Shown piece after piece: positions 15,523 through 58,504 of a stretch of 64,000 bases of DNA (its first letter is position 1; each line of letters opens with the position of its first letter). Made by a program: the position numbers and the translations under genes. The notes beneath the pieces are model-generated. The model searched no databases. It saw nothing but the letters and a program-made list of their open reading frames with translations, and was not told the DNA's origin. This stretch comes from Neobacillus nitrireducens (GTDB lineage Bacteria > Bacillota > Bacilli > Bacillales > Cytobacillaceae), in contig NZ_CP133262.1 in the NCBI RefSeq assembly GCF_030915405.1, forward strand, positions 3,674,501-3,738,500. Reading direction: 5' to 3'.

Positions 15523-17379
15523 TCAGCCGTTTACTAGAACAGGCTCATTTTTCCGTTCATGCCCAGAGTTATCAAACGCCATGATCATGGCTATAAACGG
15601 TTCGATGAATTGAGGATCAAATTGTTTTCCAGAGCAATCACGCAATTCAGCAATCGCTTCATGGAAGGTTTTTGTTTTTTGATAAGGACGCTCGGTTGTC
15701 ATTGCATCAAAGGAATCGATCACACAGAGAATTCGCGCCAGCTTGGGAATCGATTTTCCTGCTAAGCCATATGGATAGCCGTTCCCGTCATAGCGTTCAT
15801 GGTGGAGTTCAACTAGCGGAATCAAGTCTTCTAATTTCTTATTCGTTGAAATGATCTCTTTTCCATAAGTTACGTGCTTCTTCATCCATTCCCATTCATC
15901 AGACTCAAGCTTTCCTTTTTTATTTAAAATCTCCCGCGGGATTTCTATTTTTCCAATGTCATGGACAAGAGCTCCAAGAATCAGCGTTTTGCGTTCATGA
16001 ACACTTAAGTTAAGGATCCGTGAAAAATCAACCGCATATTGGTAGACCCGTTTACTGTGGCGATAAGTATAGACATCTTTTGAAAGGAAGATCTTTAATT
16101 GAAACTCCGCTTCCTCCAGCTCCTTTTCAAGTGAAAGTAAGCGATGAACGGAATATTCAGAATGCTCATTATAGATTTGGACAAGATTCTTCCCCTGGTT
16201 TTTCGCCGCGTACATGGCTTGGTCTGCTCTGTTCAGAAGTTCAGAAATATTGTAGGTCTCCTTTTCACATTCGGCAATCCCAGATGAAAAGGACAAGCAG
16301 CCGTACGGGAGACGTTCCACCCCAATATAGTAGGTGTCATTTACTTTCTTTCGTAATTCATTCATGAACGAATAAGCGGTTTTACAATCGGTGTTGGGCA
16401 TGATGATCGAAAATTCTTCGCCGCCATAGCGTGCAACGATAAAATTTGCCGCGTCGGACTCGGTTTTTAAAATGGCACCAAATTCCTGAAGCAGATGATC
16501 GCCTTGAATATGCCCGTACAAGTCATTAAATTTTTTAAAATCATCGATATCAAGGATAACCACACTTAAAGGCTGATCCGTTTCCTTTGCTAGAGCTACT
16601 TCCTTTTCCAAAATTTCTTTAAAGTAACCGTGGTTATTGAGACCAGTAAGGAAATCTTTATTTGCCTTCTCAGAAATCTCTTTAAATAGGTTAAAATGCT
16701 GTTTAAATGCTAAAGACAATAAAAAGGCAATAAAGGTGAAGAGAGTTAAACCAAATAATTTTTCGGGTTTCATTAAAATGACTAGGACTAATGAAAGCAC
16801 AAGTGTACTAATATATGTGGCCGTTGTCTCCTTAATAATAGCCTTAAAAAAGTTTACGAGGTTTTCTGTTGCTTCCAATATGAAATAGATCCCAACTAAT
16901 AGTAGATTTAGTGCAAAATAGGTGCAAAAAGAAAGTAAATAGGGAAGGATGTTATCGACACTGATTGGTCCAGTGGAGCCATCTGTAAACATAAAAGCAT
17001 AATAGGAACAAATGATCATTAAGGAATAAACTGAGAAATTAAATAGATGTTTCCACCAGGCGATTTTTCGCTGGAATAACGCAAATACAATGGAATGTAT
17101 GAATAAAACAAGTAATGATGTATTTAATCCATACAAAAAAAGACTTGCTAGATAAATAGAAGAATCCATAGAAAGGGAGTTACCCTTTGGAGGAATCAGT
17201 ATGGTGTAGTAATTAAGCAATAAAATGGAACCGGAAAAAGCAAAAATAACAATCCAATCCATTTGAGAGTACTGTAGGATTTTAATCAAGACAGTAAAGA
17301 ATAAAATCCCTAAGCCCGAAATTAAAAAAAGGTATATATTTGCAGGTTTCTTTAGAATACGCATACTCATCACTCTCAT
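15523..17379 (-). CDS. Membrane GGDEF / HD-GYP cyclic-di-GMP protein
   Basis: A 618-aa protein with about seven membrane helices in residues 1-225, then a GGDEF diguanylate cyclase domain with GGEEF at 319-323, then an HD-GYP phosphodiesterase domain (HDIGK, H473-D474; HHERYDGNGYP near 527-537). Both active-site signatures look intact, so it may make or degrade c-di-GMP. No RxxD inhibitory site is seen at the usual place before GGEEF. It lies downstream of the DUF5317 gene and the 35-codon ORF in the same direction, likely one transcription unit. The N-terminal region probably senses a membrane signal. Confidence 0.9.
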   Translation of the reverse strand: MRVMSMRILKKPANIYLFLISGLGILFFTVLIKILQYSQMDWIVIFAFSGSILLLNYYTILIPPKGNSLSMDSSIYLASLFLYGLNTSLLVLFIHSIVFALFQRKIAWWKHLFNFSVYSLMIICSYYAFMFTDGSTGPISVDNILPYLLSFCTYFALNLLLVGIYFILEATENLVNFFKAIIKETTATYISTLVLSLVLVILMKPEKLFGLTLFTFIAFLLSLAFKQHFNLFKEISEKANKDFLTGLNNHGYFKEILEKEVALAKETDQPLSVVILDIDDFKKFNDLYGHIQGDHLLQEFGAILKTESDAANFIVARYGGEEFSIIMPNTDCKTAYSFMNELRKKVNDTYYIGVERLPYGCLSFSSGIAECEKETYNISELLNRADQAMYAAKNQGKNLVQIYNEHSEYSVHRLLSLEKELEEAEFQLKIFLSKDVYTYRHSKRVYQYAVDFSRILNLSVHERKTLILGALVHDIGKIEIPREILNKKGKLESDEWEWMKKHVTYGKEIISTNKKLEDLIPLVELHHERYDGNGYPYGLAGKSIPKLARILCVIDSFDAMTTERPYQKTKTFHEAIAELRDCSGKQFDPQFIEPFIAMIMAFDNSGHERKNEPVLVNG

Positions 17380-31066: not shown

Positions 31067-33127
31067 ATGAAAAATCAAAGTAAAAGCACCGATTTGGGTA
31101 TGTTTATTCAAACCTTTAAATCTGTTCTGCTAAATCTCCCTGTACCCTGCTTCATTCTTGATCTAGAAGGTACAATTGTGTTTGCCAATAATGCAACGAT
31201 CAAGCTAACGGGGTATCAACGAGAAATAGATTTTAAAAGGAGCTTTCTCTCTCAATTGGATGATGTATATATTGAAAAAACGATTGAGCATATTAAAACC
31301 GTTCTTAATGGTGAAAGACTTCAGGTTCAGATTGAAATCAGGCATCAAAATAAGCAAAATATTCCGGTAGATATCGTCTCGATTCCGCTTGAGATCCGTG
31401 GGTTGGTTCAAGGGATTTGCGGCTTTATTATAGAACAGTCTGAAAAAGATGCGGTCATCCATCAACTTTATGATCCAAGCAATTGGGATAAAATTTTAAA
31501 CGAAATCGATATTTGTTTATGGTCTGTTGATGCAAAAACGATGGAAACACTTCAAATATCCTCCGCCTCTCAGCGCATTTTTGGTTACTCCGAGGAAGAT
31601 TTTGTTCAGAACCCCTATTTGTGGCTGGATATCCTTCATCCCCATGATAAAGCAGACTTCCTAGAGCAACTCGCACTATTAGACAAAGGGCAATCCGTCA
31701 GAATGGAATACCGGATTCTTACCCGCCAGGGAATGGACAAGTGGGTTATTGACTATATTGTTCCTATTTTTGATGAGCTTTCAATTGGTCCTGTGCGGTT
31801 TGACCGGGTTTTAATGGATATTGATCGTCGAAAAAGAACAGAGGCTGAGTTGACCTATTTAGCCTTTCACGATCCATTAACTGGCCTGCCGAACCGCAGG
31901 GAATTTGATGAACAGCTTCGCACAGCCATTGGGGAAGCAAAGCGCAATAAGCAATTCGTGGGGATTCTTTTCATCGATATTGATCGGTTCAAGGATATCA
32001 ACGATTCGCTCGGCCACAAAATGGGAGACCAGTTGATTAAAATCATCGCAACCCGGTTAAAAAGGCATATCCGGACAGAGGATGTCATTGCCCGTCAAGG
32101 CGGGGATGAATTTGTCATTCTATTAAAAAATCTACCTAATGGGCAAATGATAGAAGAGATGGCTGCGAAAATAAGCCAGGTGGTTGCTAAACCAATTATA
32201 CTGACTGAATATGAGTACAGAATGAGTGTTAGTATTGGGACCAGTATTTTTCCCGATCATGGGCAAGATGCTGATGTGCTCATGATGAGAGCCGATCAGG
32301 CGATGTACTTGGCGAAGGAGAATCGAACGGGTATTCAGCAATATCAACAGGGCATGTCCAAAAGCCTGTCGCGAAAAATGCTTCTTGAACAATATCTTCA
32401 TAAGGCAATCGAAAAAAATGAGTTGTATTTAGAATATCAGCCTATTGTCGACGTGTATGCGAAGAAAGCCATCGGTCTGGAAGCCCTTATCCGCTGGAAG
32501 CATCCTGTCTTGGGGAGCATTCCGCCGGTAGAATTTATTCAAATTGCTGAGGAATCGGACCTAATTATTAAACTTAGCAATTGGGTTTTAGAGACAGTCT
32601 GTAGCCAGCGCCGGTTATGGCTGGATAAGTATCTATCGCCTTTTTATATCTCGATTAATGTTCCGGCGAGGCAAATCCATCAGGATCATTTCATTGAATC
32701 GATTAAACATTCCTTACAAAAGTATGATTTACAACCGGAACTAATAAAAATCGAAATAACCGAACGGACCGCGATGACGAATGTCGAGAAAACTTTGCAG
32801 ACGATGCAAGAATTGCAAGCATATGGGGTAGATATCATCCTGGATGATTTTGGAATCGGCTATTCATCGATTAGTTATTTGGTGCAGTACCCTTTTAATA
32901 CGATCAAAATTGATAAATCATTTATTCAGGGCCTAGACAATAAAAACCAAAAGTCGGTTTGTCGTGCATTAGTGGCAATGGGCAGAAATTTAGGGATGAA
33001 TGTGGTTGCCGAGGGGGTCGAGGAAATAGACCAATATCAATATTTATGCAGCATTGGCTGTAATAAAATCCAAGGCTACTATTTTAGCAGACCTACATCG
33101 GTGGAATTGGTAGAGCAGTTTTTCTAG
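31067..33127 (+). CDS. PAS-PAS-GGDEF-EAL cyclic-di-GMP protein
   Basis: A 686-aa cytoplasmic signalling protein. Two PAS domains (about residues 12-130 and 145-255; second with GYSEEDF and a PAC-like end) precede a GGDEF domain with GGDEF at 345-349 and an RTED inhibitory site at 336-339, then an EAL domain starting E472-A-L, with the metal-binding and catalytic stretches EITERT, DDFGIGYSS and EGVEE present. Both enzymatic halves look intact, so net activity cannot be predicted. It is a single-gene unit. With the HD-GYP protein and riboswitches it supports c-di-GMP control in this organism. Confidence 0.92.
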   Translation: MKNQSKSTDLGMFIQTFKSVLLNLPVPCFILDLEGTIVFANNATIKLTGYQREIDFKRSFLSQLDDVYIEKTIEHIKTVLNGERLQVQIEIRHQNKQNIPVDIVSIPLEIRGLVQGICGFIIEQSEKDAVIHQLYDPSNWDKILNEIDICLWSVDAKTMETLQISSASQRIFGYSEEDFVQNPYLWLDILHPHDKADFLEQLALLDKGQSVRMEYRILTRQGMDKWVIDYIVPIFDELSIGPVRFDRVLMDIDRRKRTEAELTYLAFHDPLTGLPNRREFDEQLRTAIGEAKRNKQFVGILFIDIDRFKDINDSLGHKMGDQLIKIIATRLKRHIRTEDVIARQGGDEFVILLKNLPNGQMIEEMAAKISQVVAKPIILTEYEYRMSVSIGTSIFPDHGQDADVLMMRADQAMYLAKENRTGIQQYQQGMSKSLSRKMLLEQYLHKAIEKNELYLEYQPIVDVYAKKAIGLEALIRWKHPVLGSIPPVEFIQIAEESDLIIKLSNWVLETVCSQRRLWLDKYLSPFYISINVPARQIHQDHFIESIKHSLQKYDLQPELIKIEITERTAMTNVEKTLQTMQELQAYGVDIILDDFGIGYSSISYLVQYPFNTIKIDKSFIQGLDNKNQKSVCRALVAMGRNLGMNVVAEGVEEIDQYQYLCSIGCNKIQGYYFSRPTSVELVEQFF

Positions 33128-44799: not shown

Positions 44800-44880
44800 G
44801 TATTCGGAAGCTGGCGAGCATCATCACAGATATTAGCCCCTATAGCTTTGCGTCACCATTTTTCAATGATTTTGCCATTA
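44800..44880 (-). ncRNA. Cyclic-di-GMP-I (GEMM) riboswitch, after motB
   Basis: Reading leftward: GGCAAA, a P2 stem ATCATT-GAAA-AATGGT with its GNRA tetraloop, GACGCAAAGC, then GGGGCTAA, a P3 region, and GCCAGCTTCCGAA. These are the conserved parts of the class I c-di-GMP aptamer. A TATAAT hexamer (44907-44912) lies just upstream but without a good -35; read-through from motB is also possible. Downstream a CTCCT could pair with the GGAG of the 53-codon ORF, suggesting translational control. Confidence 0.8.
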
Positions 44881-44930
44881 TCGTCCAATTTATGGAATAT
44901 GTAACTATTATAGTCTGGGAGACGAATAGA

Positions 44931-49058: not shown

Positions 49059-49499
49059 TTATAGAACAACTTTCTCTCTGCTCTTATCCCAAAGAATTTT
49101 AAATAGCTTTTGCTCGGCCTTTTCGTCTAATCCTAAAAAGTGGACACCGAAATCATATTTACCGTTCTTGAGTCTTTTCCGCCTTTCGATTTTTCCGACA
49201 AAGGAGAAATCTTCCCCTAATTCAAAAAACACCTTGATTTCATCGACATCGGTTAAATCCTCATACGTAATAAGTCTCATCCCAGAAATACTAATATCAC
49301 GAATTGTGCCAAAGAGAACTGAGTCGGGTGAAGCGGGTACAATAAACGTACATTCATGCTCCCATAAACTAAGCCGAAAGGCGTTTCGACGGTTTTTCTT
49401 GGTGGGCTCGGCGGTGTTCTTTTTTCTGAATGAAAAATTTAATAGAATAATAACTAAGACTAATATAAATAAACCAACGGCCAAATACGTCGTATTCAA
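49059..49499 (-). CDS. Membrane-anchored PilZ-domain c-di-GMP receptor
   Basis: A 146-aa protein with one N-terminal membrane helix (about residues 5-22), a short basic linker and a PilZ domain. The c-di-GMP-binding signatures are present: RxxxR (R38, R42 in RRNAFR) and DxSxxG (D68, S70, G73 in DISISG). TTG start at 49499 is chosen because GGGGAG lies 6 nt upstream. The gene is antisense between flhP and flgM, so its transcription runs against the flagellar genes. A regulatory role in motility is likely but inferred. Confidence 0.8.
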   Translation of the reverse strand: MNTTYLAVGLFILVLVIILLNFSFRKKNTAEPTKKNRRNAFRLSLWEHECTFIVPASPDSVLFGTIRDISISGMRLITYEDLTDVDEIKVFFELGEDFSFVGKIERRKRLKNGKYDFGVHFLGLDEKAEQKLFKILWDKSREKVVL

Positions 49500-49575
49500 T
49501 TGGAACTCCCCTCTTTTATTATAGTAATAAATTAAATTTACCACTATAATCCAATTATGAAAAGGCTTTTTGGAT

Positions 49576-52859: not shown

Positions 52860-53036
52860 TCCACCAATTTTCGGGTTAATTCCGCCAACTTGATCTGGAC
52901 CCCGTTGACTTTCGGTGTTATTCCGCCAACCTGTTCCGGGATCCCGCCAACTTTTGAGGTTATTCCGCCAAACTAGGATCGGAATCCGCCAACTTCGGAG
53001 CCTTTTCCGCCGAAACCCAAGATGATTCCGCCAAAT
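52860..53036. repeat. Intergenic tandem repeat with a 21-bp period, before hag
   Basis: The core tccgccaac(t) occurs at 52860, 52881, about 52901, 52922, 52943, 52964, 52985, 53006 and 53027. Every step is 21 bp except one compensated 20/21 pair, so nine copies stay in register. It sits between the flgL terminator and the flagellin gene. No gene is encoded. Confidence 0.75.
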
Positions 53037-53199
53037 TCAAATATCACCGATTTATTTTTGGATAAACAAACTGTTAAATTAACAAATATTTTTTAAAAAG
53101 CACCATTTCCTCTCTCCATTCTAGTAAAACTGTCGTTAATTAATAGTAGAAAGACAAGAAAACAAGTAATACATAAACACTATTAGGAGGAAAATTAAA

Positions 53200-54804
53200 A
53201 TGAGAATCAATCACAACATTTCCGCGTTAAATGCTTACAATCAATTAAGTGCAAACTCAACTGCAGCTTCAAAAAATCTTGAAAAATTATCGTCAGGTTT
53301 ACGTATCAACCGTGCGGCTGATGATGCAACGGGTCTAGCAATCTCTGAAAAAATGAGAGCGCAAATCCGCGGCTTGGATCAAGCATCACGTAATGCCCAA
53401 GACGGAATTTCCTTAATCCAAACAGCTGAAGGTGCCATGAACGAAACACACAGCATCCTACAACGTGTTCGTGAATTATCAAACCAAGCAGCTAACGGAA
53501 CTTCAACTACTCAAGATAAACAAAATATCCAAACCGAAGTAAACCAATTAATCGACGAAATTGATCGCGTAGCTGGTGATACAGAATTTAATAGCTTTAA
53601 GATTCTAAATGGCGATATCTCTAAGACTGCTAAATTTGCCCAATCAACAGGCGGAGCAGTTGCGAATGTTGTTGCGTCTGCAACAGCTGCGGCGGGAACA
53701 ACAACTGTAACAACTTCAGGTCCTTTAGCAACAGCTGAAGAATCGATTTGGCAAACAGGAACACTAATGGATCACAATGGCGTAGCTGCTCCTGTAAGTG
53801 GCACGACCAAAATGACAGACCTTGGTGATGGCACTAGCAACTATGGTCTTCAAGTTGGCGATGAAATCACTCTTTCTGCAGTTGTAGGCGGCGAAGTGAA
53901 ATCTTCTGTTTATGTTGTTACAGCTGAAAGTACATTAGACGATTTTATGTCTTCTGTTAAAAATACACTAGGTGCTGCTGATGTATCGATGAGTTATGGC
54001 GCAGGGGATTTTTCATCACTTGGTACAGGCGCAATGGGTCTTGATGGAACCTCTTCTGCTGCCAACACATTGGTTATTTCTGGTCAATCTGGTGCAGCCA
54101 ATGATATTAGCACATTAAAAATCTCAGCATCTTCATCAGAAGGGATTGCACGTTCGTCCTTTAACACTGAAATGAATGGCGGTCTTAATGGTGGACTAGA
54201 ACAACTTCAAGTTGCTGGAAACCAGGGTGACTTTATCGCTCAAGTTGACATAAATGGAGACGCTACTGCAGGGACTGGTGATGGAAGAATCGCTGTTCGT
54301 TCTAATTCTGTTGTTCAAGTTTCTAATTTACAATTATCATTTAATGACACAATTGCCGCTGCTGCTACATCTACGATTACAGTAGGTTCTACGAATAATA
54401 CAGTATCCATCCATGTGGGCGCAAACGCAGGACAAACATTGGAAATTGGCATTAACGCGATGGATTCAGTAGCATTAGGCCTGAAAACTAACGGCGTTAA
54501 TATCTCTCTTATGAGTGAAACAAGTGCAGAAGATGCATTAAAAGTTTTAGATGGTGCAATCGGTCGTGTTTCGTCTGAACGTTCTAAATTAGGGGCAATT
54601 CAAAACCGTTTAGAACACACCATCAACAGCCTTGGAACCTCTTCTGAAAACTTAACGGCTGCTGAATCCCGTTTAAGAGATGTTGATATGGCTAATGAGA
54701 TGATGCAATTTACGAAAAATAATATCCTTTCTCAAGCTGCACAATCTATGCTTGCGCAAGCTAATCAACAGCCTCAAGGTGTATTACAGCTTCTTCGTGG
54801 TTAA
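53200..54804 (+). CDS. hag: Flagellin
   Basis: A 534-aa filament protein. The N-terminal D0/D1 region (residues 1-140: MRINHNISALNAYNQL, GLRINRAADDATGLAISEKMR) and the C-terminal D1/D0 region (about 435-534: SLGTSSENLTAAESRLRDVD, ILSQAAQSMLAQANQQPQGVLQLLRG) are highly conserved and interact in the filament core. The middle 290 residues form an enlarged variable D2/D3 region, rich in Ala, Gly, Ser and Thr, which B. subtilis-type Hag (about 300 aa) lacks. AGGAGG precedes the ATG. A strong terminator follows. Confidence 0.95.
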   Translation: MRINHNISALNAYNQLSANSTAASKNLEKLSSGLRINRAADDATGLAISEKMRAQIRGLDQASRNAQDGISLIQTAEGAMNETHSILQRVRELSNQAANGTSTTQDKQNIQTEVNQLIDEIDRVAGDTEFNSFKILNGDISKTAKFAQSTGGAVANVVASATAAAGTTTVTTSGPLATAEESIWQTGTLMDHNGVAAPVSGTTKMTDLGDGTSNYGLQVGDEITLSAVVGGEVKSSVYVVTAESTLDDFMSSVKNTLGAADVSMSYGAGDFSSLGTGAMGLDGTSSAANTLVISGQSGAANDISTLKISASSSEGIARSSFNTEMNGGLNGGLEQLQVAGNQGDFIAQVDINGDATAGTGDGRIAVRSNSVVQVSNLQLSFNDTIAAAATSTITVGSTNNTVSIHVGANAGQTLEIGINAMDSVALGLKTNGVNISLMSETSAEDALKVLDGAIGRVSSERSKLGAIQNRLEHTINSLGTSSENLTAAESRLRDVDMANEMMQFTKNNILSQAAQSMLAQANQQPQGVLQLLRG

Positions 54805-54821
54805 TAACTAGTTATTACAAT

Positions 54822-54859
54822 TAAAAAGAAGTCTCTTATCAGAAGGGACTTCTTTTTTT
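54822..54859 (+). terminator. Terminator of the flagellin gene
   Basis: A 14-bp imperfect stem (AAAAAGAAGTCTCTT with AAGGGACTTCTTTTT) and T7 tail, directly before the second riboswitch. Confidence 0.88.
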
Positions 54860-54905
54860 AAGCTATCTACTGAAATGGTAATGAAAGTTTTGGTTGATCA
54901 TCGTG

Positions 54906-54990
54906 AAAAAGGGCAAATTTCAGGAAACTGGAAGACGCAAAGCTGCGGGACTAACCTTAAATAAATAAGTATGTCAGCCGGGTTGCCACA
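54906..54990 (+). ncRNA. Cyclic-di-GMP-I (GEMM) riboswitch, before the large surface protein
   Basis: GGGCAAA, a P2 stem TTTCAG-GAAA-CTGGAA with the GAAA tetraloop, GACGCAAAGC, then GGGACTAA, an AT-rich P3 and CAGCCGGGTTGCC: all conserved class I c-di-GMP aptamer blocks are present. It lies 46 nt after the hag terminator and 50 nt before the AGGAGG of the next gene. No clear promoter lies in the 46 nt, so it may be fed by read-through from hag. The expression platform (terminator or RBS blocking) cannot be decided by eye. Confidence 0.85.
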
Positions 54991-55039
54991 TTACGTGCCT
55001 TTTTCGCATATGCTTCTACATTTTTTAGGAGGAATACGT

Positions 55040-58000
55040 ATGCAAATTGTAAGAAGGAAGATTTCCTTTCTTGTGTTAGCGGTACTATTTTTACAGTTAT
55101 TATCACCGATTACTTCAGCTTTTGCTGCAAGTAATTTAACCACCGCTCCTACAAATTTACGTTATTATCCTGATGGGATTGATAACTTTCTCTTAAGATG
55201 GGACGGGGTGACCGGTGCTAGTGGCTACCGTCTTTATGAAAAAGTGGGCGAAGAAAATGTCTTAAAAAAACAAACATCAAATCTCTATTTCTACCTTGCA
55301 AGTGTACCAGAAGGAACTCATACCTATACCGTGATCGCTTATAATAGTACGGGAGAGTCTCCGTTCTCAACATCTTTAAACGTTGAGATTAAATACCCTG
55401 ATATGCAATCACCTAGCGGATTGACTTCAAGTATCGTCAACGGTAATGATGTCTCGTTAAAATGGAATGCAGTAGAATTCGCAACAACTTACAATGTTTT
55501 CGAAGTGAAAGATGGTCAGAGGGAATTACTTGCTTCATCAACAAAACCAAATCAATATTTTGCTAATGTTTCTGAAGGTGAACATGTTTATGAAATAACT
55601 TCATACAATTCCCAATACGGAGAATCAACACCAAGCTCTTTTGCTGTAAATGTTGTCTTTCCTGATATGGCAGCACCTACTGGCTTAACTGCTTATATTA
55701 ATGATATTAATAATGTTTTGTTTAGATGGAATGCGGTTCCTTATGCTGAATCCTATAATGTATATCAAATTGTAGATGGAGCAAGGAAGTTTATTGCTAC
55801 GACAACAGATACAAAACAGTATCTATCAAACTTGCCTGAGGGCGAAAATATTTATGAAGTGACTTCTTATAATTCTAAATATGGAGAATCGTTGGCAGGT
55901 AGCAAAAGCAAGTTTACGGTCTCTTATCCGGAAATACTTCCGCCACAAGAGGTTTATCCTTATTTTTATAATGGAAACGATCTTTTTCTCATGTGGTCTG
56001 CAGCAGGATATGCAGAACAGTATAAACTCTATCAATTGGTCGATGGTCAAAAAGAATTAGTTACGACTACTACCAATCGTTCACACTACTTCAGTAACCT
56101 TCCAGAAGGTGATTATACCTTTGAAATCGTTTCTGTCAGTAGCCGTTTTGGAGAATCCACTGCAAAAACTTACGACGTAACGGTTGAATTCCCGGAAATG
56201 CAGGCACCTAAAGCGTCAATCGATATGGATACTCCAACTAGTGCGGTAATTGGCTGGTCCTCTGTACCGTATGCAACAGAATACGAAGTCTATAAATTAG
56301 TAGATGGAGTACCTACATTAATTGGAACAATAACATCAACAAAAACATCTTACTATGTAAGTGATTTACCACAAGGTAAACACGAATATATGGTTCTAGC
56401 AAAATCCGACCGCTTCGGAAAATCTGGCTACTCTAATGTAGTTGTGGCAGAAGTAACACCAGTCCTACCTGCTCCAAAACCAAGCGCACCAGAAGTAAAA
56501 GATGATTCTGTCACTCTTACCTGGGAACCAGTGGAAGAAGCAGACAAATACAATGTCTACAAAGAAGTAGACGGAGAACGTGTATTAGTTGGAACTACTA
56601 CGGAACCAACCATTACTGTAGATACTCCAAAAGAACAAGGCACTCATGAGTACTTAATCGTTCCTGTCACAAAAGATGGAGTAGAATCAATTGACTATGC
56701 AACGGTTGAAGTGGTGATCGACAAACCATCTGATGTCACAGCGCCAGTAACGGTTGCCGAACCAGCGGATGAAAAATGGTCAAAAGAGGATGTTTCCGTC
56801 AAGCTAACGGCAACAGACGATTTAAGTGGTGTGAAGAGCACCTTCTATTCTATTAACCATGCAGAGTTCGTCGAAGGTACACAATTAACACTCAATCTAG
56901 AAGGCATGAACACCGTTTCATTTTATAGCGTTGATAATGCTGGAAATGTTGAGGAAGTTAAGACAGTAGAAGTGAAAATCGACAAACAAGCGCCGGAAAC
57001 GGTGATCAATGCGAGTGCCTATTGGTATAACAATAAGGTTAATTTAGAACTAACAGCAATCGATGATCTTTCTGGAGTAAAAGCCAGCTATTATTCAGTT
57101 GATAACGGAGCTTTTACAGAAGGAACGCAATTTAGCATCGAAGAATCAGGCATTCACACGGTTTCCTTCTACAGCGTTGACAATGTTGGCAATGTTGAGG
57201 AAGCAAGAACAGTTGAAGTGAAAATTGACAACCAAGCGCCAATAACTACTGCCGAGGTAAAAAATAATAGTTTGGTGGAATTAACAGCAACTGATGACCT
57301 TTCCGGAGTTCAAGCAACCTATTACTCCGTAAACGGTTCTGATTTTAAAGAAGGTACAAGCCTTGAGGTTACCCAAGCAGGAGTAAATAAAGTTACCTTC
57401 TACAGCATAGACAAAGCTGGAAACTATGAAGAACAGCAAACCATTGAAGTTGTAGTAGATAAAACGGCACCGGTCACTGTAAGTAATATTGAGGATCAAT
57501 GGTACACCGAAACAGCGAACGTTGAACTGACAGCAACTGATGACCTAAGCGGAGTAAAAACAACATACTATTCTATCGATGGTGCTGACTTCACCGAAGG
57601 CACAAGCTTTACAATCGAAAAAGAAGGCACACACACAGTTACATTTTATAGTGTTGACAAAGTTGGTAACACAGAAGTAAAAAATACTGTAGAAGTAAAA
57701 GTAGATAAAACTGCTCCTACAACAGTAAGTAATATCGAGGATCAATGGTACACAGAAGATGTAAACGTTGAGCTTACTGCAAGTGATGAGCAAAGCGGTG
57801 TGACAGCAACCTACTATTCTATCGATGGTGCTGATTTTACCGAAGGCACAAGTTTTACAATCGAAAAAGAAGGCACACACACAGTTACATTTTATAGTGT
57901 TGACAATGCAGGCAACACAGAAGTAAAAAACACAGTCGAAGTAAAAGTAGACAAAACCGCTCCAACGATCAAAGCAGATTTCCCAACGGAATATGCGCTT

Positions 58001-58504
58001 GGATCAAGCTTCAACCTTAATTATGATGCAGCTGATAATCTTTCAGGCATTAAAGAAAGCTTTGTCGAAGTCAACGGTGTTAAGAACACAACAGGAAAAA
58101 TCACCTTTGACAAACCTGGCGTGAATACAATTAAGATTACAGCTATAGACAATGCGGGATTAAAAACAGTTGTAGAAAAAAAGGTATCCACCTATATTCA
58201 AGCGAATATTGAAGTAACACCGAAAGTCATCAACGGTAACAAAGGAGACTTTACGGTTAGGGTAACATTACCTAAAGGCTACAGTTTTGATAATGTTGAC
58301 TTAGCCACGGCAACCATTAATAAAGTTAACGCACTTAACGACAGCAAGGGCTTAGCAAATCAAGCGAAAAAAGGCCAATTTAAATTTAATCGTGAAGATT
58401 TTATTTGGGATGAGAAACAAGAACTATTAGTTTTCCATGCAATGGTTGATGGAGTTCTTGTCGTAGGAAGCACAACTGTCGATGTTATTAATAACCATAA
58501 ATAA
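55040..58504 (+). CDS. Large secreted FN3/OmpL47-type repeat protein (candidate c-di-GMP-controlled adhesin)
   Basis: An 1154-aa exported protein. Residues 1-29 are a signal peptide. Residues about 33-565 form six FN3-like modules (each about 88 aa, ending in YPDM-, FPDM- or YPEI-type links). Residues about 567-970 hold five OmpL47/Ig-like modules with ELTATDDLSGVK, YYSVDNG and EVKVDKTAP, and a sixth divergent one follows. A unique C-terminal domain of about 110 residues ends the chain; no LPXTG, SLH or CBD anchor is seen. The frame opens at 54971, but ATG 55040 has AGGAGG and the signal peptide begins there. The riboswitch upstream implies c-di-GMP control, typical of adhesion. Confidence 0.88.
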   Translation: MQIVRRKISFLVLAVLFLQLLSPITSAFAASNLTTAPTNLRYYPDGIDNFLLRWDGVTGASGYRLYEKVGEENVLKKQTSNLYFYLASVPEGTHTYTVIAYNSTGESPFSTSLNVEIKYPDMQSPSGLTSSIVNGNDVSLKWNAVEFATTYNVFEVKDGQRELLASSTKPNQYFANVSEGEHVYEITSYNSQYGESTPSSFAVNVVFPDMAAPTGLTAYINDINNVLFRWNAVPYAESYNVYQIVDGARKFIATTTDTKQYLSNLPEGENIYEVTSYNSKYGESLAGSKSKFTVSYPEILPPQEVYPYFYNGNDLFLMWSAAGYAEQYKLYQLVDGQKELVTTTTNRSHYFSNLPEGDYTFEIVSVSSRFGESTAKTYDVTVEFPEMQAPKASIDMDTPTSAVIGWSSVPYATEYEVYKLVDGVPTLIGTITSTKTSYYVSDLPQGKHEYMVLAKSDRFGKSGYSNVVVAEVTPVLPAPKPSAPEVKDDSVTLTWEPVEEADKYNVYKEVDGERVLVGTTTEPTITVDTPKEQGTHEYLIVPVTKDGVESIDYATVEVVIDKPSDVTAPVTVAEPADEKWSKEDVSVKLTATDDLSGVKSTFYSINHAEFVEGTQLTLNLEGMNTVSFYSVDNAGNVEEVKTVEVKIDKQAPETVINASAYWYNNKVNLELTAIDDLSGVKASYYSVDNGAFTEGTQFSIEESGIHTVSFYSVDNVGNVEEARTVEVKIDNQAPITTAEVKNNSLVELTATDDLSGVQATYYSVNGSDFKEGTSLEVTQAGVNKVTFYSIDKAGNYEEQQTIEVVVDKTAPVTVSNIEDQWYTETANVELTATDDLSGVKTTYYSIDGADFTEGTSFTIEKEGTHTVTFYSVDKVGNTEVKNTVEVKVDKTAPTTVSNIEDQWYTEDVNVELTASDEQSGVTATYYSIDGADFTEGTSFTIEKEGTHTVTFYSVDNAGNTEVKNTVEVKVDKTAPTIKADFPTEYALGSSFNLNYDAADNLSGIKESFVEVNGVKNTTGKITFDKPGVNTIKITAIDNAGLKTVVEKKVSTYIQANIEVTPKVINGNKGDFTVRVTLPKGYSFDNVDLATATINKVNALNDSKGLANQAKKGQFKFNREDFIWDEKQELLVFHAMVDGVLVVGSTTVDVINNHK

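What the first reader, a model, noticed from the sequence alone, without database searches (positions are those of the whole stretch)
54906..58504. c-di-GMP-I riboswitch between flagellin and a giant secreted FN3/OmpL47 repeat protein
Seen: the aptamer at 54906-54990 (P2 TTTCAG-GAAA-CTGGAA, GACGCAAAGC, CAGCCGGGTTGCC), then AGGAGG and the 1154-aa exported protein. Known: c-di-GMP promotes adhesion and represses swimming. Inference: this is a surface adhesin turned on (or off) by c-di-GMP, physically placed inside the flagellar operon after hag, so one locus could shift from swimming to sticking. It has no known wall anchor, so it might attach to the filament, be released, or bind the wall through its C-terminal 110 residues.
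Basis: partly seen in the sequence, partly recalled or inferred. Interest (0 to 1): 0.85.

Follow-up and report, generated by a model that had tools for sequence, protein, structure and literature searches.

The report
Riboswitch-controlled secreted protein beside flagellin
Right behind its flagellin gene, a bacillus carries a sensor RNA for the second messenger c-di-GMP that leads into a large secreted repeat protein; the same pairing recurs in related genera, and folding models suggest, without settling it, that the signal turns the protein off rather than on.

Summary
Observation confirmed: a complete c-di-GMP-I aptamer lies at 54902-54990 (+, 79.8 bits, cut-off 35), 49 nt before a 1154-aa protein with OmpL47-type repeats, directly after hag. 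The pairing is old. A profile of the protein's last 191 residues hits 20 of 298 other sampled Bacillales genomes; of the 19 with upstream DNA held, 18 have a c-di-GMP-I-type aptamer 69-84 nt before the start (the 19th is a partial match), and 12 of the 18 show late flagellar genes nearby. In the window's genus the gene follows flagellin in 9 of 10 carriers, but the aptamer precedes it in only 3; the other seven probably rely on hag read-through. The sign is unsettled: in a crude folding test, locking the aptamer lowers ribosome-site access (23 leaders, mean -0.147 against -0.014 shuffled), suggesting OFF, but the window's own leader shows no change and presumed OFF controls respond weakly. So 'adhesin switched on, swim to stick' is only partly supported. 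The C-terminal domain models as an Ig-like sandwich; no wall anchor was found.

The parts
53200..54804 (+). hag, flagellin (534 aa)
   Evidence: Pfam Flagellin_N 2.4e-44, Flagellin_C 1.7e-30
54826..54859 (+). hag intrinsic terminator (12-bp hairpin, 5-nt loop, then U run)
   Evidence: read by eye; the simple scan did not list it. A like hairpin follows hag in L012, L074, L075, L076
54902..54990 (+). c-di-GMP-I aptamer; positions matching Vc2 G20, A47, C92 read as G54912, A54939, C54986
   Evidence: RF01051 79.8 bits; residue equivalence is my reading by eye, guided by the Bc1/Vc2 correspondence in PMC11218506 (passages)
54903..54915 (+). 5' arm GTGAAAAAGGGCA, overlaps the ligand site
   Evidence: complementary to the 3' arm
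54996..55007 (+). 3' arm TGCCTTTTTCGC
   Evidence: duplex -14.7 kcal/mol; 13 of 1000 shuffles as good
55013..55032 (+). local hairpin CTTCTA/TAGGAG that half-covers the Shine-Dalgarno site AGGAGG 55027-55032
   Evidence: MFE; SD accessibility 0.53
55040..58504 (+). 1154-aa exported repeat protein
   Evidence: ORF, signal peptide read by eye, repeats
55130..56719 (+). FN3-like repeats (approximate limits)
56720..58159 (+). OmpL47-type / PKD-like repeats (approximate limits)
   Evidence: NF047446 six stretches; the last one PKD-like, Z 10.7 to a ColG PKD domain, 82 aligned, rmsd 2.2
58181..58501 (+). conserved C-terminal Ig-like beta-sandwich domain
   Evidence: alignment A3 of 20 sequences; model pLDDT 91.1, pTM 0.83

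Best explanation
A conserved regulatory module: a class-I c-di-GMP riboswitch leader followed by the gene of a large secreted Ig-repeat protein, often kept beside late flagellar genes in Bacillales. Shown: the aptamer, the protein's architecture, the recurrent pairing and the flagellar neighbourhood. Inferred: transcription arrives largely by read-through from hag (no good promoter was seen in the 97-nt gap), and c-di-GMP lowers output, so that the protein is made while cells swim and is shut off, with the flgB operon, when c-di-GMP rises. In most family leaders the proposed mechanism is that the free leader keeps the terminator and the SD-covering helix apart through its 5' arm and a hairpin after the aptamer; ligand locks the aptamer's ends, and terminator and/or SD covering wins. 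The protein probably acts outside motile cells (first contact, aggregation or filament decoration); which one is not known.
For: Aptamer. Pairing with this protein family in 18 of 19 other Bacillales genomes with upstream DNA held, spacing 69-84 nt. Late flagellar genes in the fetched stretch in 12 of the 18 (named by eye; Pfam run only on neighbours in L114 and L123). Genus: after a flagellin gene in 9 of 10 carriers; in the seven without aptamer only 42-96 nt separate the flagellin stop from the first start, with a terminator in them. OFF sign: SD access falls when the aptamer is locked, mean -0.147 over 23 leaders against -0.014 for shuffles, 8 of 23 with at most 3 of 60 shuffles as low. 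Terminator probability rises by 0.01 or more in 15 of 18 leaders with a listed terminator, six of them by 0.05 or less. A helix that would cover the SD is matched by at most 50 of 500 shuffles in 12 of 22 leaders. flgB/fliM leaders show, by eye, the layout described for the OFF switch Cd1 (PMC9262584 passages). All seven functional class-I switches of C. difficile are OFF (PMC6366702 passages).
Against: For the window and L012 the model predicts no change in SD access (0.53 to 0.54), and no canonical terminator lies between aptamer and start. In the window the 5'-arm/3'-arm helix excludes part of the ligand site and includes a U run, which read alone suggests ON. The presumed OFF controls respond weakly: of 7 flgB/fliM leaders with a listed terminator only flgB_own (0.14 to 0.37) and fliM_L080 (0.79 to 0.96) rise by more than 0.1, and SD access of fliM_L080 rises. 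In 5 of 23 leaders SD access does not fall and in 7 of 23 the change is not below the shuffle mean. Equilibrium folding ignores kinetics; the locked state is a crude stand-in for ligand; the leaders are related, not independent. No known ON switch could be run as a control. The published class-I switch before a Bacillus adhesin, Bc2-cap, is ON (PMC4933901 passages).
Confidence: 0.5

Rival explanations
1. ON switch (closest to the first reader): without ligand the 5' arm pairs with the U-rich 3' arm and stops transcription; c-di-GMP holds the 5' arm in the aptamer and lets the gene be expressed, so rising c-di-GMP shuts flgB and opens the adhesin.
For: Arm complementarity beats most shuffles in four of five leaders first tested (window 13, L081 0, L082 11, L084 3, L083 106 of 1000 as good). 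Unconstrained folds of the five contain it. Bc2 before the collagen adhesin Cap is a reported class-I ON switch (PMC4933901 passages).
Against: In the wider family the locked state tends to raise terminator and lower SD access. By eye, the 3' arm CCUUUUUC can also cover the SD in several leaders (L081, L123), which reverses the sign. Relatives without the aptamer tie the gene to hag.
Confidence: 0.3
2. In this strain the aptamer no longer switches the gene, whether or not it still binds c-di-GMP; expression simply follows hag read-through.
For: No predicted response of SD access in window and L012; the platform (49 nt) is shorter than the 56-85 nt of the other leaders; close sisters L074-L076 lack the leader altogether; the tree needs three changes of the aptamer label. 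Precedent: Bc1 of B. thuringiensis binds c-di-GMP but its genes did not respond in vivo (PMC11218506 passages).
Against: The aptamer scores 79.8 bits, the best of the six in the genome, and the leader is almost unchanged in L012, so it is not visibly decaying; but the L012 protein is 92% identical in its best segment and little time may have passed.
Confidence: 0.17

Closest known systems
Bc2 riboswitch - cap/cbpA (Bacillus thuringiensis; PMC4933901, PMC7423583; passages seen)
   Same: class-I c-di-GMP aptamer directly before a large repeat surface protein in a bacillus
   Different: CbpA has an LPXTG anchor and a collagen-binding domain, and Bc2 is ON; here no LPXTG, no Collagen_bind match in this genome, flagellar-cluster location, sign probably OFF
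Cd1 (Cdi-1-3) - flgB operon of Clostridioides difficile (PMC6366702, PMC9262584; passages seen)
   Same: class-I switch in a flagellar cluster; the flgB/fliM leaders of this genus look alike in layout by eye
   Different: Cd1 controls the basal-body operon, not a secreted repeat protein
c-di-GMP class-II switches before C. difficile surface proteins CD630_28310 and CD630_32460 (PMC6366702; passages seen)
   Same: c-di-GMP RNA sensor before predicted adhesins
   Different: other aptamer class, ON, sortase-dependent
OmpL47 of Leptospira (NCBIfam NF047441/NF047446)
   Same: same repeat type
   Different: below the equivalog cut-off (202.2 against 250 bits); other domains present

Membership tests
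c-di-GMP-I riboswitch (RF01051) | covariance-model score over the curated cut-off, complete model | tested here: met
   79.8 bits against 35, model 1-87
c-di-GMP-I riboswitch (RF01051) | ligand-contact residues equivalent to Vc2 G20, A47, C92 | tested here: met
   read by eye at 54912, 54939, 54986; that these are the contact residues is from PMC11218506 passages; that G rather than A at 20 favours c-di-GMP over cGAMP is recalled
c-di-GMP-I riboswitch (RF01051) | binds c-di-GMP and changes expression | not testable with these tools
   no bench data; the folding model shows no response for this leader
MSCRAMM/LPXTG adhesin such as CbpA | sortase motif | tested here: not met
   no LPXT[GAN]/NPXT[GN] in the window protein or 12 related ones
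MSCRAMM/LPXTG adhesin such as CbpA | Collagen_bind domain | tested here: not met
   not among the 14 Pfam families listed for the protein; 0 matches in G000
OmpL47-type repeat protein (NF047446) | repeat-domain score over cut-off | tested here: met
   371.2 bits against 40, six stretches
OmpL47 equivalog (NF047441) | equivalog cut-off | tested here: not met
   202.2 against 250 bits
fn3 (PF00041) | gathering score | tested here: not met
   15 against 25 bits; an FN3-like fold is still likely from GH85_C and PDB FN3 hits
FlgD hook-capping protein (NF007198) | equivalog cut-off | tested here: not met
   C-terminal part 22.2 against 267 bits

The most novel reading that the evidence does not exclude
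Bacillales carry an undescribed, ancestral motility-phase module: a giant secreted Ig-repeat protein, typically encoded in the late flagellar cluster, whose own class-I riboswitch closes it when c-di-GMP rises; a surface protein of swimming cells switched off rather than on by the 'stick' signal, and rewired to plain hag read-through in part of one genus.
Probability: 0.4. Interest if true: 0.7.

Novelty: new variant of a known kind. Interest (0 to 1): 0.5.

Why it matters
c-di-GMP is a widespread swim/stick signal, and the RNA sensors before surface proteins that I met in the papers seen come from few Gram-positive species. A pairing seen here in 13 genera (the window's own and 12 others), often tied to flagellar genes, would let one ask whether a given surface protein belongs to the swimming or the sticking state, and offers a natural series of species with and without the RNA in which to see what the RNA adds.

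Tried and rejected
First reading of the expression platform (ON, from 5'-arm/3'-arm pairing) was demoted after the wider family was seen. Of 17 outer leaders the arm duplex is matched by at most 5 of 500 shuffles only in L111, L123, L124, L125, so arm pairing is not a constant of the family. Among six flagellar leaders one (flgB_L076) was matched by only 30 of 1000, so arm complementarity is not wholly specific either.

FlgD-like C-terminal domain: NCBIfam hit (E 9.5e-5) far below cut-off; not pursued. Fold of the C-terminal domain alone: Foldseek best E 3.0e-3, VIA-align best Z 6.8, only generic Ig-like sandwiches; no claim that the fold is new.

A sigma-D-like pattern scan gave 31 hits against 20 expected, none in the hag-aptamer gap; not informative. 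A sigma-A-like scan of that gap gave at best 7 of 12 matches.

Full report
Observation. The aptamer is real: RF01051, 54902-54990 (+), 79.8 bits, complete. It lies between hag (53200-54804) with a terminator hairpin (54826-54859, read by eye; the scan did not list it) and a 1154-aa protein starting at 55040. The genome (G000, one contig, 5.15 Mb) has six such aptamers and one FlhA match, so probably a single flagellar system. One of the six stands 11 kb downstream, before a flgB-like gene (L007 3892-3978).

Organism.

The protein. Signal peptide by eye; OmpL47-type repeats, six stretches, E 1.6e-113; the FN3-like repeats are below the Pfam fn3 cut-off but match solved FN3 domains weakly. Thirteen related ORFs range from 992 to 1849 aa with variable repeat counts by motif. 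No sortase motif in 13 of 13, and no wall-binding domain is among the 14 Pfam families listed for the window protein at E up to 1. The last repeat is PKD-like (Z 10.7 to ColG PKD). The C-terminal 107 residues are conserved in the 20 sequences aligned and model with pLDDT 91.1 as an Ig-like sandwich without a specific match. Nothing identifies an anchor or a ligand.

The pairing in the genus. Of 23 same-genus genomes searched, 10 have a match at E 1e-100 or better: G001, G004, G005, G007, G008, G009, G014, G020, G022, G023. The gene follows a flagellin gene (named by eye) in 9 of 10, all but G022. An aptamer precedes it in G005, G022 and G023, and in L012, a close relative from another collection; not in the other seven. 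In those seven, 42-96 nt lie between the flagellin stop and the first start codon, and a terminator-like hairpin takes up much of that, so there is little room for a separate promoter.

The pairing beyond the genus. The profile of the last 191 residues hits 21 of 299 Bacillales genomes, the window's own included, in 15 of 116 genera. Of the 20 others, all were fetched (19, L084); L118 is cut by its contig end. Of the remaining 19, an aptamer stands 69-84 nt before the start, as I place it, in 18: L084, L108-L117 and L119-L125, from 12 genera. The 19th, L126, matches only the repeat part of the profile (3-91) and has none. In five (L109, L110, L111, L113, L117) the best family is the variant RF03167, c-di-GMP-I-GGC. 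Late flagellar genes are visible in the fetched stretch in 12 of 18, named by eye: flagellin in L110 (one ORF between), L111, L113, L117, L119, L123; fliD/fliS/fliT-like genes in L114, L115, L120, L121, L122 and, 3 kb away, L125. Pfam was run only on L114 (FliS, FliD, FlaG found; the fliT-like ORF had no match) and L123 (CsrA, flagellin). L084, L108, L109, L112, L116 and L124 show none there.

History. A tree of 23 C-terminal regions needs three changes of the aptamer label. Window and L012 group with aptamer-less L074-L076 (100/100), and aptamer-less L077, L079, L080 form another group (99/99). Loss from an aptamer-bearing ancestor is the simplest reading for the genus, but loss and regain in the window lineage is not excluded.

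Sign of the switch. By eye, flgB (own, L074-L076) and fliM (L077-L080) leaders carry a strong terminator whose 5' half can pair with the aptamer's 3' flank (CCGAAGA..AUAG and variants), the layout given for the OFF switch Cd1 (PMC9262584 passages). For the secreted-protein leaders I compared free ensembles with ensembles in which the ligand site is locked.

Terminators: of 18 leaders with a listed terminator, probability rose by 0.01 or more in 15 (L082-L084, L109-L117, L119, L121, L122; largest +0.83 in L119, +0.71 in L113), stayed in L123 and L124, and fell by 0.01 in L125. Six of the 15 rises are 0.05 or less (L082, L084, L110, L116, L117, L121). The presumed OFF controls moved little: flgB_own 0.14 to 0.37, fliM_L080 0.79 to 0.96, fliM_L078 0.94 to 1.00, fliM_L079 0.97 to 0.99, flgB_L074-L076 within 0.01; fliM_L077 had no listed terminator.

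SD access (23 leaders, window and L012 near-duplicates): mean change -0.147, shuffles -0.014; below the shuffle mean in 16 of 23; at most 3 of 60 shuffles as low in 8 (L082, L083, L084, L111, L119, L123, L124, L125). Change zero or positive in window, L012, L109, L112, L122; within -0.05 in L108, L110, L115, L116, L120, L121. An SD-covering helix (CAUAGUC..ACC with GGU..GACUAUG and variants) is matched by at most 50 of 500 shuffles in 12 of 22 leaders: L082, L083, L108, L110, L114-L117, L119-L122; the window gives 55, and L081, L084, L113, L124, L125 do worse than most shuffles. The family therefore leans OFF; the window is silent.

Reading. Flagellar neighbourhood, probable hag read-through in the aptamer-less species and the folding trend together favour a protein of motile cells that c-di-GMP switches off. 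The reported Bc2-cap ON switch (PMC4933901 passages) and the window's own arm pairing keep ON alive (0.3); Bc1, which binds c-di-GMP yet did not respond in vivo (PMC11218506 passages), shows that no switching at all is possible (0.17).

What is new. Class-I switches before surface proteins and before flagellar operons are both known. The listings of searches showed no paper on this pairing or its recurrence; only open PMC text was searched, and of the papers listed I saw passages of six (PMC4933901, PMC11218506, PMC7423583, PMC9262584, PMC6366702, PMC4342826), none read whole.

Noticed in passing
window 44803-44886 (-): Second c-di-GMP-I aptamer (69.6 bits), just after motB, before a 53-aa ORF without a Pfam match; a similar small ORF (by eye) follows the aptamer at L010 3692-3776.
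   Followed up: partly
L009 5816-5905 (-), own genome 2284815-2284904: c-di-GMP-I aptamer directly before a 43-aa SinI-like antirepressor (Pfam SinI 4.3e-11) beside a sinR-like gene; a c-di-GMP switch before sinI is listed for Bacillus methanolicus (PMC4342826 passages).
   Followed up: partly
L007 3892-3978 (+), 11 kb downstream of the finding: c-di-GMP-I aptamer with a Cd1-like terminator layout (by eye) before a flgB-like gene; in L077-L080 the flagellar aptamer stands before fliM instead.
   Followed up: partly
window 49059-49544 (-): PilZ-domain protein (Pfam 2.9e-10) inside the flagellar cluster, a possible second c-di-GMP receptor.
   Followed up: no
window 15523-17379 (-) and 31067-33127 (+): GGDEF/HD-GYP-like and PAS-GGDEF-EAL-like proteins by eye; not tested with profiles.
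   Followed up: no
window about 52880-53040: About seven copies of a TTCCGCCAA-like motif between flgL and hag (by eye).
   Followed up: no
L113 6681-7046 (-), L117 6532-6866 (-): Group I intron (RF00028) between two flagellin pieces in L113 and overlapping the flagellin 3' end in L117.
   Followed up: no
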